Assembly (NCBI GenBank): GCA_016839635.1
Contig: JAEOTV010000154.1
Coordinates: 1 to 13,964, forward strand
Direction: 5' to 3'
DNA length: 13,964 nucleotides
Origin: Promethearchaeota archaeon
GTDB lineage: Archaea > Asgardarchaeota > Lokiarchaeia > Sigynarchaeales > SOKP01
Shown here: in pieces, positions 936-10,957 of the stretch
Numbering within the stretch: the stretch's first letter is position 1
Layout: every line of letters begins with the position of its first letter
Program-made: the position numbers and the translations under genes
Notes under the pieces: model-generated
Told to the model about the DNA's origin: nothing
Databases searched by the model: none
The model's input: the letters and a program-made list of their open reading frames with translations, nothing else

Positions 936-1937
936 TTGACGATTGAAAAGATTCTTCAAAGGATTAATGGTTTACTAAAAAAAGCTAATTACGAAACCTT
1001 AGCACTTGGTAATTTTGCTAGTACAAAGAGTAAATTCTGTTTTGATCTTTTAGTTAGAAAGGATGATTTAATATTTAGTGTTAAAATCTTTCCCAATATT
1101 GATAACTTAAATCAAGATATAATTCGTGATATTAAATCTCTATCCTTAATCCTCAAATCAAAACCTCTTTTAATTGGGGTCAGAAATCGGTATCAAAAAT
1201 TAGAAGATAACACAATTTATGTAAGAGAAGGCTTACCCTTTATAACACTTAATACATTTGAGAATATTCTTAATGATAATTACCCTCATATTTTAGCAAG
1301 AAGAGGTGGCGGAGTAGTATTTTTAGATGGCACATTAATGAAAATTTTGAGAGAAAAGCGTTCAATAACGAGAAAAGAATTATCGGAAGTCTTAGGAGTG
1401 ACTAAACGAACAATTTGCTCATATGAAAACGAATCTATGAGACCTTCTGAGAAAATTGCTAAAAAATTATTAGAAATCTTGGATAATACTGCTTTATGTA
1501 AAAAAATCAATGTTTTTGGATGGAGCATTAATGATAATATAGAAGAAAATGAAATATTGGAAGAAAAAGAATTAAGTAATTTTGAATCTCATGTTCAAGA
1601 TATAATAAAAGATATTGGGCTTTCTTCTTATTGGTATAAGAAAGGATCAGTTCCATTTAAATTATCTTTATACTCTCATTCTGATAAAATAAAATTAGAT
1701 GGATTTTATCCTCTATTTTCTGGTATATCAGAAGAACAAGGTAAAATTAATGAAATGAGCTTTCAATGCTTAAAGATGTTCACAGATTTATTCCATAAAA
1801 CTTCGCTTTTCATCATAGATAATGATATTAAAATTCCTGAACCGTTTAAAAAAACAAATATTTCTATTGTTAAAATTAAAAATCTAGAAGAAATAGATAA
1901 TGAAGAAGAGTTCATCGAACTCATTCAAGATTCATGA
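936..1937 (+). CDS. COG1395-type archaeal HTH transcriptional regulator
   Basis: 333 residues from a TTG start at 936; no in-frame ATG lies near the N-terminus, and residues from about 5 onward already match the family. The layout fits the archaeal putative HTH regulatory protein family COG1395. The N-terminal domain (about 1-118) has conserved-looking stretches CFDLLVRKDDLIFSVKIFPN, PLLIGVR and LEDNTIYVREGLPF. A central XRE helix-turn-helix spans about 133-183 (RSITRKELSEVLGVTKRTI, then CSYENESMRPSEKIAKKL). The C-terminal domain (about 215-333) contains PFKLSLYSH and PLFSGISEEQGK. Its DNA targets and signal are unknown. The last 38 nt overlap the true start of rnhB at 1900, so the two genes are probably co-transcribed. 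No clear Shine-Dalgarno precedes the TTG. Confidence 0.8.
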   Translation: MTIEKILQRINGLLKKANYETLALGNFASTKSKFCFDLLVRKDDLIFSVKIFPNIDNLNQDIIRDIKSLSLILKSKPLLIGVRNRYQKLEDNTIYVREGLPFITLNTFENILNDNYPHILARRGGGVVFLDGTLMKILREKRSITRKELSEVLGVTKRTICSYENESMRPSEKIAKKLLEILDNTALCKKINVFGWSINDNIEENEILEEKELSNFESHVQDIIKDIGLSSYWYKKGSVPFKLSLYSHSDKIKLDGFYPLFSGISEEQGKINEMSFQCLKMFTDLFHKTSLFIIDNDIKIPEPFKKTNISIVKIKNLEEIDNEEEFIELIQDS

Positions 1938-2643
1938 GGATGAAACAGAACTAATATGTGGGATAGACGAGGCTGGTAGAATTTATTTCTCTTCGAATTA
2001 AATGTTAAAAGGCTCTGTCTTAGGCCCTATGGTTATATGTGGAATTTGCTTCAAAAGATCAAAAATCAATCTATTATCTGAAATAGGTGTTAAAGACTCA
2101 AAAAAATTATCTCCTAAAAGTAGGAGTAAATTAGCAAAACTCTTACAAGATTATTGTTACTCAAAAAAAATACTTGTCATCAGTCCACAGGAAATCGATG
2201 AGAGAGAAAGTAAAAAAATTACATTGAATCGGCTTGAAGAATTAAAAATGGCAGAAATTATCAACATATTGACACCAGATGTTATTTATATAGATGCTGC
2301 TGATGTAAATGAACAGAGATTTGGAAACTCTATAAAAAAATTATTGAATTATACTCCAAAAAAAATTATATCTAAACATAAAGCTGATGATCTATACCCA
2401 GTAGTCTCAGCAGGATCTATAATGGCTAAAGATAAAAGAGATACTCTAATTGAAGAACTGCATAAAAAATATGGAAATTTCGGCTCAGGATATCCTTCTG
2501 ATGTCAGAACAACTCAATTTCTTAGAGATTATGTAAAAAAGAATAAGAAAGCTCCAATAATCGCAAGAAAATCATGGGATACTACTAAAAGAATAATAAA
2601 TGAAATAGTTTCATCAAAAAAAATAACTGATTTTCTTAATTAA
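1900..2643 (+). CDS. rnhB: Ribonuclease HII, split by a predicted 30-nt intron
   Basis: RNase HII cuts the RNA strand of RNA-DNA hybrids and removes single ribonucleotides from DNA. Read straight through, the frame from ATG 1900 stops at TAA 1999-2001. Joining 1900-1979 to 2010-2643 gives 237 residues, a normal archaeal length. In the joined protein the first catalytic motif is ICGIDEAGRGSVLGPM (D23, E24). Later come VKDSKKL, YIDAADVN (D122), HKADDLYPVVSAGSIMAKDK (D153) and GSGYPSD, completing the DEDD active site. Starting at ATG 2002 instead would lose both the D and E of the first motif and the GR of GRG, so that call would be a dead enzyme. ATG 1900 is the only plausible in-frame start and lies inside the upstream HTH gene (38-nt overlap). 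The 3' end overlaps flpA by 4 nt, tail to tail. Alternatives are a nonsense-mutated pseudogene or a sequencing artefact. The rest of the gene is intact, which argues against decay. Confidence 0.88.
1980..2009 (+). other. Predicted bulge-helix-bulge intron inside rnhB
   Basis: Thirty bases with an in-frame TAA (1999-2001) separate the Arg and Gly codons of the RNase HII GRG motif. Folding by eye gives four parts. The inner hairpin pairs 1981-1985 with 1999-2003 (five A-U pairs) and, past one U-U mismatch, 1987-1989 with 1995-1997; its loop is 1990-1994. The central 4-bp helix pairs 1974-1977 with 2004-2007 (one U-A, three G-U wobbles). The outer exon helix pairs 1973 with 2011, 1969-1971 with 2013-2015, and 1965-1968 with 2017-2020. 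The 3-nt bulges are 1978-1980 and 2008-2010, on opposite strands. Archaeal splicing endonuclease cuts between the second and third bulge bases, giving exon joining AG|A to restore Arg-Gly. Weak points are the wobble-rich central helix and a G-G mismatch at 1972/2012. Confidence 0.75.
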
Positions 2644-8159: not shown

Positions 8160-8406
8160 TTTTCAAATTTAAATTAGCTCATAATACAATTAATATATTT
8201 TTAAACTTTTTATACAACATTATTTTAAATACTCGTTAAAATCGTAAAAATGATATAATAAATATCCCTTCTTGGTAATCGTGGACTTTCTTACAAAAAA
8301 GATCTTAAAAAACTTTGATTTTATTTAAAAAAATTTATCTTTTTAGACCTTTTTATATAAAATATAAGAATATAAAATGACAAAAATTTTTGAGTAATGA
8401 ATGAGA
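8160..8406. other. AT-rich intergenic region without a visible gene
   Basis: These 247 bases separate elp3 from the first 360-residue paralog. The first third has T-rich stretches (about 8197-8215) that could end elp3 transcription. No tRNA, structured RNA or convincing small gene was seen. The only clear signal is the TATA element at 8351-8362. Confidence 0.5.
8351..8362 (+). promoter_or_regulatory. TATA element for the first RHH paralog
   Basis: TTTTATATAAAA is a strong archaeal TATA-like sequence. A start site about 26 nt after its centre would fall near 8382, leaving a leader of about 25 nt before the ATG at 8407. No Shine-Dalgarno is seen. Confidence 0.45.
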
Positions 8407-9489
8407 ATGCCTTCACAAAAACCTTTATCAAAGAAGAAAATAACACAACAAACAATTTCAATTACCCCAAATCTTAAAGAACGAATTGATAACTATGTCA
8501 TAGAAAATCAAGAAAAACATCCAGATGATAAGAGGTTCAAAAGTGTTTCTGCTTTTTATAATCATGTATTAAACAAAACACTAGATTGTTTTGAAAAGGG
8601 AAAAAATTTGGACGATTTTGAAAATTATGTGGACAGTGAATTCAGGAATTTTTTTGATAGAATCTCTTTTAAGGCTACAATTCCATATTATGAGGAAGCA
8701 ATTAAAACAAATAAATATATAAATCCTACACTTGAGAAAATTCCATCCTTTTTCTTAACAATTAGGCGATTTTACATGAAAATGATGGAATCTCGTGATA
8801 TCTTTAGTATCCAAAATACAGTAAGTCGAATCAAAAATTATTTGGTATCAAATAATTTAACAAAAGAATTTAAGATAGATCTATTTACTGGAAAGAGTCC
8901 TACAGATTTATCAGGAGTCTTTGAATATTCAGGTATTTATAAAAATTTAAGTTATGATACTTGTAAATATACTTCTGCATTTTTTGGGATATTAGGAATA
9001 AGAGTAAATAATATTGTATATTCAGAAAAAGATTGCTATTATAGATTTGATTTAAAAGCAACTGATTTGTTTTTCCGGGATGATCTAGTGAAGTCTGAGA
9101 GAATTATGTTAATGAATGAAAATATTTCTCATTTTATTAATTACTGCAGAATTCTCAATGATAAAGATTATTATTTATGGATGAAAATGGCTGAAGATAA
9201 GAACATTATTCTTTGTTTTAACAACGATGAAACTCAAAATAGATGGATGAATTTAATTGAAAATGAAATAAGAAAATTCTCAGATAAAGATGATAATAGA
9301 CTCCAAATTTTAAAAATTTTTGAAAAATTGCATTGGATTGATATTGAAAACGAAGATGAACTATTTTTTTATATAAGATTATCAGATTCGAAATATCAAT
9401 ATGAAAAAGAGTATTTAATGAAGATTCTTTCAAAAAACTCCCAAATCTTCTATGAAAATGGAGGATATTATTTGAAAGATTTAAACTAA
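8407..9489 (+). CDS. Unknown protein with RHH-like N-terminus, paralog 1
   Basis: 360 residues from ATG 8407. An ATG two codons earlier (8401) is possible, but 8407 aligns exactly with the start of the second copy at 9875, and both are then 360 residues long. Residues 13-66 look like a ribbon-helix-helix DNA-binding unit: a strand (TQQTISITP), a helix, then KRFKSVSAFYNHVL and EKGK. About 170-220 contain SGVFEYSGIYKNL, CKYTSAFFGILGIRV and an aromatic strand ending CYYRFDL. This order of glycine, cysteine and final strand recalls ligand-binding V4R domains, but only distantly. The C-terminal third (about 230-360) is helical and well conserved between copies (SERIMLMNEN, DKDYYLWMKMAED, KLHWIDIEN). 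No signal peptide or membrane segment. A DNA-binding sensor is a guess; I do not recognise a named family. Confidence 0.75.
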   Translation: MPSQKPLSKKKITQQTISITPNLKERIDNYVIENQEKHPDDKRFKSVSAFYNHVLNKTLDCFEKGKNLDDFENYVDSEFRNFFDRISFKATIPYYEEAIKTNKYINPTLEKIPSFFLTIRRFYMKMMESRDIFSIQNTVSRIKNYLVSNNLTKEFKIDLFTGKSPTDLSGVFEYSGIYKNLSYDTCKYTSAFFGILGIRVNNIVYSEKDCYYRFDLKATDLFFRDDLVKSERIMLMNENISHFINYCRILNDKDYYLWMKMAEDKNIILCFNNDETQNRWMNLIENEIRKFSDKDDNRLQILKIFEKLHWIDIENEDELFFYIRLSDSKYQYEKEYLMKILSKNSQIFYENGGYYLKDLN

Positions 9490-9874: not shown

Positions 9875-10957
9875 ATGAGTAATAGAAAATACCTTTCAAA
9901 TAAGAAAACTGCCCAACAAACAATTTCAATATCACCAGCTCTTAAAGATTGGATAAAAAGATATGTAAATGTAAAAAACAGGAAGGATCCTAATGATGAG
10001 AGATTTAAAAGCGTAAGTTCGTTCATTACTTATATTTTGGATAATATTATGAAACTTTTTAAAGAAGGAAAAACCATTGAAGATTTTAAAAGGGTAGAAG
10101 ATCAAGTTTATAAAGATTTTTTTGATAAATTTACGTTTAAAGCCACAATCCCACTTTATGATATGGTAGCCGAGAGTAATAGATATGCTGAAATTTCTTT
10201 TGAATTTATTACACGATTTATTATGGCGGTGTATCATTTTTATCGAAATATTTATTTAAAGGAAAAGAGTCCTGAAGGTTGGAAACTAATATTTGAGCGG
10301 TTCAGAAATAGGACATATCCTTCTAATATCACAAAAGAACTCAAGCTTGAGATTTTTCCTGAAATTAATAAAAATTATGGGACAGGTTATTTGGAGTTTG
10401 TTGGTAAGCAGAGAAATTTACATTTCGAAAATTGCAAATTTTTCGCGGGTATATGTGGCATTTTAGGTATAAAGGTCACTGATTTTCATTATTCTTCTAA
10501 AGATTTTTATTGTAGGCTTGATTTAATAGAGACCCCTCTCGCGTTTAGAGAAGAATTAGCTAAGAAAGAAAGAATAAAACTATTACAAGAGAATGTAAAT
10601 TTTATTATCAACTATAATAGAATGCTCTCTGATAAAGATAAGTTCTTATGGATGAATTTAGCAGAGGATAATGACGTATTTGTATGTTTTAGGAGCAAAA
10701 ATGTATTTAATAAATGGATTAAAGCCATCGAGAATGATTTAAATAAATTTGGTACACAAGAAGATTTTCTTAACAAAATATTACAATTCTTTAATAAACT
10801 TCATTGGATTAGAATTGAAAATATAAAAGACCTTTCTTTTAGAATCGAGCAATCTCTCGAGAAAGATAATAAACAAAAAGGTTTTTTACTAGAATATCTT
10901 TCACAATATTCAGAAATTTTTCAAAACGATGAGATTTATCAATTAAAAAATGTTTAA
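9875..10957 (+). CDS. Unknown protein with RHH-like N-terminus, paralog 2
   Basis: 360 residues, homologous over its full length to the protein encoded at 8407-9489 and of identical length; by eye roughly two in five residues agree. The N-terminal RHH-like unit is TAQQTISISPALKDWIKRY, then DERFKSVSSFITYIL and EGK (13-66). Both copies share FFD...F(T/S)FKATIP at 82-93. The middle segment has TGYLEFVGKQRNLHF, NCKFFAGICGILGIKV and KDFYCRLDL (about 170-217), a pattern faintly like V4R small-molecule domains. The C-terminal part keeps KKERIKLLQENV, LSDKDKFLWMNLAED and NKLHWIRIEN. The conserved cysteine in this copy (C187) aligns with C186 of paralog 1. Divergence between copies points to an old duplication. 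The stop overlaps the start of a small downstream frame (ATGTTTAA). Function unknown. Confidence 0.75.
   Translation: MSNRKYLSNKKTAQQTISISPALKDWIKRYVNVKNRKDPNDERFKSVSSFITYILDNIMKLFKEGKTIEDFKRVEDQVYKDFFDKFTFKATIPLYDMVAESNRYAEISFEFITRFIMAVYHFYRNIYLKEKSPEGWKLIFERFRNRTYPSNITKELKLEIFPEINKNYGTGYLEFVGKQRNLHFENCKFFAGICGILGIKVTDFHYSSKDFYCRLDLIETPLAFREELAKKERIKLLQENVNFIINYNRMLSDKDKFLWMNLAEDNDVFVCFRSKNVFNKWIKAIENDLNKFGTQEDFLNKILQFFNKLHWIRIENIKDLSFRIEQSLEKDNKQKGFLLEYLSQYSEIFQNDEIYQLKNV

What the first reader, a model, noticed from the sequence alone, without database searches (positions are those of the whole stretch)
1965..2020. Bulge-helix-bulge intron in the RNase HII mRNA
Thirty bases with an in-frame stop interrupt the catalytic GRG motif of an otherwise intact rnhB. 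The insert forms its own hairpin (1981-1989 with 1995-2003), the flanking exons pair with each other (1965-1973 with 2011-2020, one bulged base and one mismatch), and two 3-base bulges (1978-1980, 2008-2010) sit on opposite strands of a 4-bp central helix. That is the archaeal splicing-endonuclease substrate. Cutting at the canonical bulge positions removes 1980-2009 and rebuilds ICGIDEAGRGSVLGPM in frame. Protein-coding BHB introns are rare in archaea (best known in cbf5); I know of none described in rnhB. The structure and the restored motif are independent lines of evidence. The central helix has three G-U pairs, so it may need a broad-specificity endonuclease.
Basis: partly seen in the sequence, partly recalled or inferred. 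Interest (0 to 1): 0.93.

Follow-up and report, generated by a model that had tools for sequence, protein, structure and literature searches.

The report
Conserved mRNA intron in archaeal rnhB
A 30-base insert interrupts the catalytic motif of the RNase HII gene in this Lokiarchaeial (Asgard) contig and is predicted to be spliced out of the messenger RNA by the tRNA-splicing machinery; inserts at exactly the same position of the same gene occur in three archaeal phyla, so this rare kind of coding-gene intron is likely more widespread than known.

Summary
rnhB is open from ATG 1900 to 2643 except for 30 bases (1980-2009) with an in-frame stop inside DEAGRG. The window is Asgard (Lokiarchaeia).

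The same site is interrupted in 35 of 227 Asgard genomes (30 nt, once 28), 4 of 389 Thermoplasmatota (35-43 nt) and 21 of 237 Nanobdellota (19-39 nt). Relatives without the insert have an unbroken motif. In 57 distinct inserts the four-pair central helix between exon and insert forms 210 of 228 pairs (0 of 2000 shuffles reach this); the exon's Gly wobble base pairs in 56 of 57, through five pair types. Outside Lokiarchaeia insert length ignores the codon frame. L147 allows only the junction that the bulge-helix-bulge (BHB) predicts. An in-frame stop lies in 56 of 57 inserts, against 36 expected.

Best reading: a pre-mRNA BHB intron, likely cut by EndA and joined by RtcB, without which full-length RNase HII cannot be made. 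No RNA was seen. It resembles the crenarchaeal cbf5 intron, in another gene and other phyla; my searches listed no report of it.

The parts
1900..1979 (+). Exon 1 of rnhB: ATG 1900 to the first two bases of the split Arg codon; encodes GIDEAG with the first two acidic catalytic residues (roles recalled)
   Evidence: translation; the joined protein aligns from residue 19 to RNase HII structures 2dfh and 1io2
1980..2009 (+). 30-nt intron (AAUUUAUUUCUCUUCGAAUUAAAUGUUAAA)
   Evidence: same-site inserts in 57 distinct sequences of three phyla plus two read by eye; relatives without it have the motif unbroken
2010..2643 (+). Exon 2 of rnhB: last base of the Arg codon to the stop
   Evidence: Pfam RNase_HII 142.8 bits on 2002-2643; dN 0.08-0.17 against dS 0.41-1.15 versus seven relatives, ungapped
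1974..1977 (+). Central helix, 5' strand (UGGU, exon)
   Evidence: pairs with 2004-2007; 126 of 136 pairs in 34 Asgard sequences, 210 of 228 in all 57
2004..2007 (+). Central helix, 3' strand (GUUA, intron)
1978..1980 (+). 5' bulge (AGA), predicted cut between 1979 and 1980
   Evidence: bases 1978-1979 are AG in 56 and AA in 1 of 57; 1980 is T in L147, where only this junction restores Arg
2008..2010 (+). 3' bulge (AAA; 2008-2011 in the alternative outer register), predicted cut between 2009 and 2010
   Evidence: base 2010 is A in all 33 aligned 30-nt sequences; junction codon AGA in 56 and AAG in 1 of 57
1981..2003 (+). Inner (intron) hairpin 1981-1989 with 1995-2003
   Evidence: 8 of its 9 pairs have changes on both sides in some sequence; 86.1% of cells paired
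1965..2020 (+). Outer (exon-exon) helix 1965-1973 with 2011-2020, with a G.G or an A.C mismatch depending on register
   Evidence: Glu codon GAG in 34 of 34 distinct intron-bearing Asgard sequences against 15 of 27 without, p 1e-5 (sequences are related)
1999..2001 (+). In-frame stop TAA inside the intron
   Evidence: an in-frame stop in 56 of 57 introns, shuffle mean 35.7, maximum 46 in 2000
2002..2643 (+). 213-aa ORF of the kind that databases list as the protein; starts inside the intron and lacks DEAGR
   Evidence: 59 of the 120 listed database homologues (the window's own entry included) lack DEAG, 44 of the 59 are 213 aa

Best explanation
The 30 bases at 1980-2009 are most likely an intron of the rnhB pre-mRNA that is predicted to be cut out at a bulge-helix-bulge by the tRNA-splicing endonuclease EndA and sealed by the ligase RtcB, rebuilding an intact RNase HII. 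The exons pair with each other, the four exon-1 bases before the 5' bulge pair with the 3' part of the intron, and the intron forms its own hairpin; the predicted cuts fall after the second base of each bulge, inside the Arg codon of DEAGRG. The insert, its position, its co-varying structure and the restored frame are shown from sequence; cutting, ligation and circle formation are inferred from the known EndA/RtcB pathway. Because an in-frame stop is kept in nearly every intron, unspliced message would yield only a short peptide without the catalytic core, so splicing is predicted to be an obligatory on-step for RNase HII. In Lokiarchaeia the intron looks old, with several clean losses; at the same site it also occurs in Thermoplasmatota and Nanobdellota, through recurrent insertion, transfer or deep ancestry (not resolved).
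For: Same-site inserts: 53 loci, 33 distinct 30-nt sequences, window included, plus L148 with 28 nt. 35 of 227 Asgard genomes score 63 bits or more with model R1; the next best, 39.6 bits, is an intronless rnhB. Thermoplasmatota: 3 of 389 and a fourth of the same draw, G400. Nanobdellota: 24 of 237 match, 21 at intron length and 3 intronless. Covariation: 35 cells changed on both sides, 0 of 500 shuffles, covariation score 0.354 against 0.06-0.10 when slid. Across phyla 210 of 228 central pairs, shuffle maximum 182 in 2000; Nanobdellota alone 69 of 76, maximum 60. Lengths in 19 Nanobdellota introns leave remainders 0, 1 and 2 on division by three in 5, 8 and 6 cases. L147 fixes the junction. 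Exon 2 is under purifying selection. RtcB in 7 of 7 genomes asked. EndA in 24 of 24, 5 of 5 and 27 of 27, intronless genomes among them.
Against: No RNA evidence. The BHB conformation is not the minimum-energy fold and RNAalifold omits the central helix. The window's central helix has three G-U pairs; 6 of 34 Asgard sequences have G.A or G.G at its second pair, and the first pair fails in 10 of 57 overall. The four Thermoplasmatota introns hardly vary in the central helix and by themselves add no covariation (15 of 16 pairs, no better than shuffled). One Nanobdellota sequence (L233) forms only 1 of 4 central pairs and would splice to Lys, not Arg. Many Asgard sequences are related, so shuffle counts overstate independence. 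No Rfam match at gathering thresholds.
Confidence: 0.95

Rival explanations
1. Programmed ribosomal bypassing: the ribosome hops over the hairpin, as in phage T4 gene 60 or mitochondrial byp elements (recalled), and no RNA is removed.
For: A short hairpin with a stop in an otherwise intact gene; the length need not be a multiple of three.
Against: Known hops use matching take-off and landing codons (recalled); here AGA would mostly have to land on another triplet: the 3' bulge is AAA in 37, AUA in 7, UAA in 4, ACA in 3, AGA in 3 and other in 3 of 57. It does not predict co-variation of the exon's Gly wobble base with the insert's 3' part (56 of 57 paired).
Confidence: 0.02
2. The gene is a decaying pseudogene, or the insert is an assembly artefact.
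For: The window's own genome is not held, and the reading frame has a stop.
Against: Same insert site in separate assemblies of three phyla, including records of 2.3 and 3.3 Mb titled as chromosomes (L003, L002); dN/dS about 0.13-0.20 against seven relatives; both exons conserved.
Confidence: 0.01
3. A shorter protein is made from the internal start at 2002, as databases list it, and exon 1 is a regulatory leader.
For: 44 of the 120 listed homologues are 213 aa and lack DEAG.
Against: That start is ATA, ATC, GTA or GTG, or absent, in other intron-bearing loci; exon 1 codes for the G-x-DEAG motif of intact relatives, which the short form lacks.
Confidence: 0.02

Closest known systems
cbf5 pre-mRNA intron of Desulfurococcales and Sulfolobales (Yokobori 2009, PMC2738675: abstract, passages and the second half of its Results and Discussion read; Watanabe 2002 known only as cited there)
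   Same: BHB-like intron in a coding gene, very short (16-44 bp there), splits the codon of a catalytic residue, spread over a clade with losses, cleaved by EndA
   Different: Other gene (rnhB), other phyla (Asgard, Thermoplasmatota, Nanobdellota), same-site occurrence across phyla; splicing not yet shown here
HVO_1309 5'-UTR BHB intron of Haloferax volcanii (PMC7714728, passages read)
   Same: mRNA intron flanked by a BHB, cut by EndA in vitro, found as a circle
   Different: 46 nt, in an untranslated leader, so it does not interrupt coding
tRNA and rRNA BHB introns, including the intron-rich tRNAs of Atabeyarchaeia and Freyarchaeia (PMC11291895, passages read)
   Same: Same fold and expected enzymes
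   Different: Non-coding RNA hosts
Putative 12-bp introns in coding genes of an archaeal virus (Peng et al., as cited in PMC2738675)
   Same: Tiny putative introns in archaeal coding genes
   Different: Shorter, in a virus, splicing not shown

Membership tests
Archaeal BHB intron | 4-bp central helix between exon 1 and the 3' part of the intron | tested here: met
   41 of 57 distinct sequences have 4 of 4 pairs and 56 of 57 at least 3; the window has 4 of 4
Archaeal BHB intron | Two 3-nt bulges on opposite strands | tested here: inconclusive
Archaeal BHB intron | Outer exon-exon helix and inner intron helix flank the central helix | tested here: met
Archaeal BHB intron | Excision at the bulge cut sites restores the gene product | tested here: met
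   junction codon Arg in 56 and Lys in 1 of 57; L147 allows only this junction
Archaeal BHB intron | Host encodes the splicing endonuclease | tested here: met
   24 of 24, 5 of 5 and 27 of 27 genomes searched; the window's own genome is not held
Archaeal BHB intron | Ligase RtcB present | tested here: met
   7 of 7 genomes asked
Archaeal BHB intron | Spliced RNA or intron circle observed | not testable with these tools
   no transcript data held
Group I or group II intron | Catalytic RNA core of hundreds of bases (recalled) | tested here: not met
   inserts of 19-43 nt; no Rfam match in the window at gathering thresholds
Translational bypass element | Matching take-off and landing codons (recalled) | tested here: not met
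   the two bulge triplets are given: AGA in 50 of 57 at the 5' side against AGA in only 3 of 57 at the 3' side
cbf5 pre-mRNA intron | Located in cbf5 | tested here: not met
   the host gene is rnhB (PF01351)
(alpha-beta)2 EndA, for the Lokiarchaeial enzyme | A catalytic and a non-catalytic subunit | tested here: met
   two or more matches in 19 of 24 genomes; active-site His present in 18 of 18 read of one kind and absent in 8 of 8 read of the other; the assembly itself was not tested

The most novel reading that the evidence does not exclude
One site in one housekeeping gene, the DEAGRG codons of rnhB, is a hot spot for coding-gene introns across Archaea: tRNA-type introns entered it, or moved between lineages, in at least three phyla, and their conserved in-frame stop makes the tRNA-splicing machinery an on-switch for RNase HII, tying removal of RNA from DNA to tRNA maturation.
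Probability: 0.45. Interest if true: 0.93.

Novelty: new member of a known kind. Interest (0 to 1): 0.87.

Why it matters
A 2020 paper (PMC7714728, passages read) says that besides its own 5'-UTR case only the cbf5 mRNA had a reported BHB intron. A second coding-gene intron family, in Asgard archaea, Nanobdellota and Thermoplasmatota, would show that pre-mRNA splicing by the tRNA machinery is not a crenarchaeal oddity and reaches the phylum held to be closest to eukaryotes. It gives 59 natural variants of one mRNA BHB substrate, down to 19 nt, with clean losses and same-site occurrences in distant lineages, so that origin, mobility and loss of archaeal introns become testable. It also exposes a systematic annotation error: 59 of the 120 listed homologues in the protein database lack the catalytic N-terminus.

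Tried and rejected
Pseudogene, artefact, bypass and internal-start readings were considered and rejected (see rivals). The P0053 entry, whose N-terminus reads through the intron in another frame, suggests a 29-nt Lokiarchaeial intron, but its DNA was not fetched. Stops reported inside rnhB for G107, G028, G043, G047, G166 and G184 (a capped list) were checked: all six have an unbroken DEAGRG. R1 over 227 Asgard genomes gave a few weak matches of other lengths elsewhere (E 0.0016 or worse), which I did not follow; R1 contains rnhB exon sequence, so it cannot exclude BHB introns in other genes. Phyla reached from G617, G620 and G618 gave only matches of intronless length (42 nt) at E 1e-6 or better: 16 of 294, 2 of 146 and 3 of 87 genomes. 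One search scored 12 candidates per genome and missed G400, which one search found with 95, so absences are weak and counts are lower bounds. Thermoproteota were not sampled.

Rows dropped: L222 and L229 fell out of the pattern because their exon 1 reads GTDDAGR and DESGR; by eye both carry a same-site insert with 4 of 4 central pairs. L156 (partial) was left out of the tree. In the tree my script labelled L077, a Thermoplasmatales row, as Asgard. One search is an earlier form with a narrower pattern (55 sequences). Of 22 catalytic-type EndA loci, four were not read by the pattern, and of nine Nanobdellota ones five were not.

Full report
What is there. The window (28.9% G+C) carries an archaeal gene set: fibrillarin, Nop5, PyrD, PyrK-like, Elp3 and GatE. 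Its closest named rnhB homologues are Promethearchaeota (Asgard), mostly Lokiarchaeia; the nearest in the tree is L001, a Lokiarchaeia MAG (84% identity). rnhB runs from ATG 1900 to 2643 but is broken by 30 bases inside DEAGRG; without 1980-2009 it encodes 237 aa that align from residue 19 to solved RNase HII structures. The claimed helices are present.

The insert is conserved and position-exact. Of the 49 loci printed (out of 80), 27 carry it and 22 do not. Counting the loci held (window and repeat copies of the same genomes included; 33 distinct sequences) have exactly 30 extra bases at the same point; L148 has 28, which breaks the frame. Relatives without it show the motif unbroken and no scar. 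A covariance model (R1) finds it in 35 of 227 Asgard genomes at 63 bits or more. The next matches, 39.6 bits or less, are mainly 42 nt long, the length of an intronless site, and the ten best of these lie at the rnhB places. In the first rnhB tree (84 proteins, quick method) the intron label needs 9 changes, 4 of them forced by supported branches. The Lokiarchaeial clade there holds 35 intron-bearing and 21 intronless proteins, including a well-supported pair that differs (L138 without, L142 with). That fits an old intron with several clean losses, though the tree is poorly resolved.

The structure is under selection. On 33 sequences the BHB pairs form in 90.9% of cells; 10 of 20 pairs and 35 cells show changes on both sides; no shuffle of 500 reaches any measure, and sliding the partner drops the covariation score from 0.354 to under 0.10. 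The exon is involved: position 1977, the free third base of the Gly codon, pairs with intron base 2004 in 33 of 33 through U-G, U-A, C-G and G-C. The Glu codon in the outer helix is GAG in 34 of 34 distinct intron-bearing Asgard sequences but in 15 of 27 without the intron (p 1e-5; related sequences, so overstated). L147 has T instead of A at 1980, so only the junction that BHB rules predict rebuilds Arg.

Other phyla. L059, a Thermoplasmatales MAG, has 37 extra bases at the same point, with no broken pair among those aligned to R1. R1 then found G412 (38 nt) and G465 (35 nt) among 389 genomes of that phylum, and G400 (43 nt) when more candidates were scored. In Nanobdellota 24 of 237 genomes match, 21 at intron length and 3 at intronless length. 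The 21 were read out: each follows a GxDEAG-like exon and precedes an RNase HII exon, and they run from 19 to 39 nt. The 19-nt one (L223) is AG | AGGAAGCAAUUCCGCCUUA | A: a four-pair hairpin with a GCAA loop and a full AGGC/GCCU central helix. Their rnhB proteins do not group with the Lokiarchaeial ones, and the Thermoplasmatota carriers sit among intronless Thermoplasmatota, so the whole gene was not simply handed over. In Nanobdellota too a well-supported sister pair differs (L216 with, L237 without). Some Thermoplasmatota and Nanobdellota introns share AGAAUA at the 5' end and UUCGCC near the 3' end (L059, L209, L216, L217, L219); homology or constraint cannot be told apart yet.

Across 57 distinct introns of the three phyla (34 Asgard, 4 Thermoplasmatota, 19 Nanobdellota), 210 of 228 central pairs form (shuffle mean 166.2, maximum 182 in 2000), and the Gly wobble base pairs in 56 of 57 through five pair types. 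The four Thermoplasmatota introns alone show no covariation (15 of 16, as shuffled). Two further introns, dropped by my pattern, also have 4 of 4. One exception, L233, does not fit.

How it likely works. The Lokiarchaeial and other Asgard genomes asked carry EndA (24 of 24; two or more matches in 19 of 24). One paralogue matches the A. pernix tRNA-splicing endonuclease chain 3p1z_B (E 1.4e-34) and keeps the Tyr, His and Lys positions (by eye for L094; roles recalled); the His is present in 18 of 18 read. The other best matches 1a79 and lacks the His in 8 of 8 read. That is the make-up of the broad (alpha-beta)2 type, but the assembly was not tested; PMC6379350 (passages read) says that only (alpha-beta)2 and epsilon2 EndAs efficiently remove introns with relaxed motifs. 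Intronless Lokiarchaeia such as G008 have both paralogues too, so this does not explain the distribution. Intron-bearing Thermoplasmatota have a fused two-domain EndA, and the 21 intron-bearing Nanobdellota one detectable EndA gene each, as do three intronless ones. RtcB is present in 7 of 7 genomes asked. Cutting and joining are therefore possible, but inferred.

An on-step. An in-frame stop lies inside 56 of 57 introns (codons that overlap the intron's edges included); shuffled introns give 35.7 on average and at most 46. In Nanobdellota, whose introns differ most, it is 18 of 19 against 11.0 (maximum 17). The shuffles keep neither the hairpin nor kinship, so this is suggestive. With the stop, unspliced message would end before the catalytic core is complete. 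The internal start at 2002 is not conserved, and 59 of the 120 listed homologues in the protein database, the window's own included, lack DEAG.

Comparison with the literature. [quoted passage not shown] PMC7714728 (passages read) reports a 5'-UTR BHB intron and calls cbf5 the only other example. Ten searches of the open-licence PMC library showed, in the titles and abstract openings of the rows listed, no paper on an rnhB intron; several listings were capped, and subscription papers and preprints are not held, so novelty is likely, not certain. Earlier predictions in other coding genes are cited in PMC2738675 (its refs 39 and 50); I did not read those.

Against it. No transcript was seen; the BHB is not the minimum-energy fold; the consensus fold omits the central helix; the window's central helix is rich in G-U; the outer register and so the size of the 3' bulge is open; and relatedness inflates the Asgard counts. 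None of these outweighs the compensation seen in Asgard and, separately, in Nanobdellota.

Noticed in passing
window 8401-9489 and 9875-10957 (+): Two proteins of 362 and 360 aa that look alike (TAQQTISI-like and DERFKSVS near the N-terminus, by eye) lie in tandem and match no Pfam or NCBIfam family.
   Followed up: no
L059, L209, L216, L217, L219 (introns): Some Thermoplasmatota and Nanobdellota introns share AGAAUA at the 5' end and UUCGCC near the 3' end; possible transfer between phyla, or constraint from the hairpin and the early stop.
   Followed up: partly
L233 (Nanobdellota, G1020): Same-site insert of 32 nt with only 1 of 4 central pairs and a Lys junction; either another register or a different solution.
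   Followed up: no
protein database: 59 of the 120 listed rnhB homologues are given from a start after or inside the intron and lack DEAG, a systematic annotation error.
   Followed up: yes
L222 and L229 (Nanobdellota): Exon 1 reads GTDDAGR and DESGR instead of DEAGR, beside same-site BHB introns with 4 of 4 central pairs.
   Followed up: partly
G166:C228:2244-2313, G143:C73:108859-108937, G071:C183:29282-29360: Weak R1 matches of intron-like length outside the listed rnhB places (E 0.0016 to 0.012); could be other BHB sites or chance.
   Followed up: no
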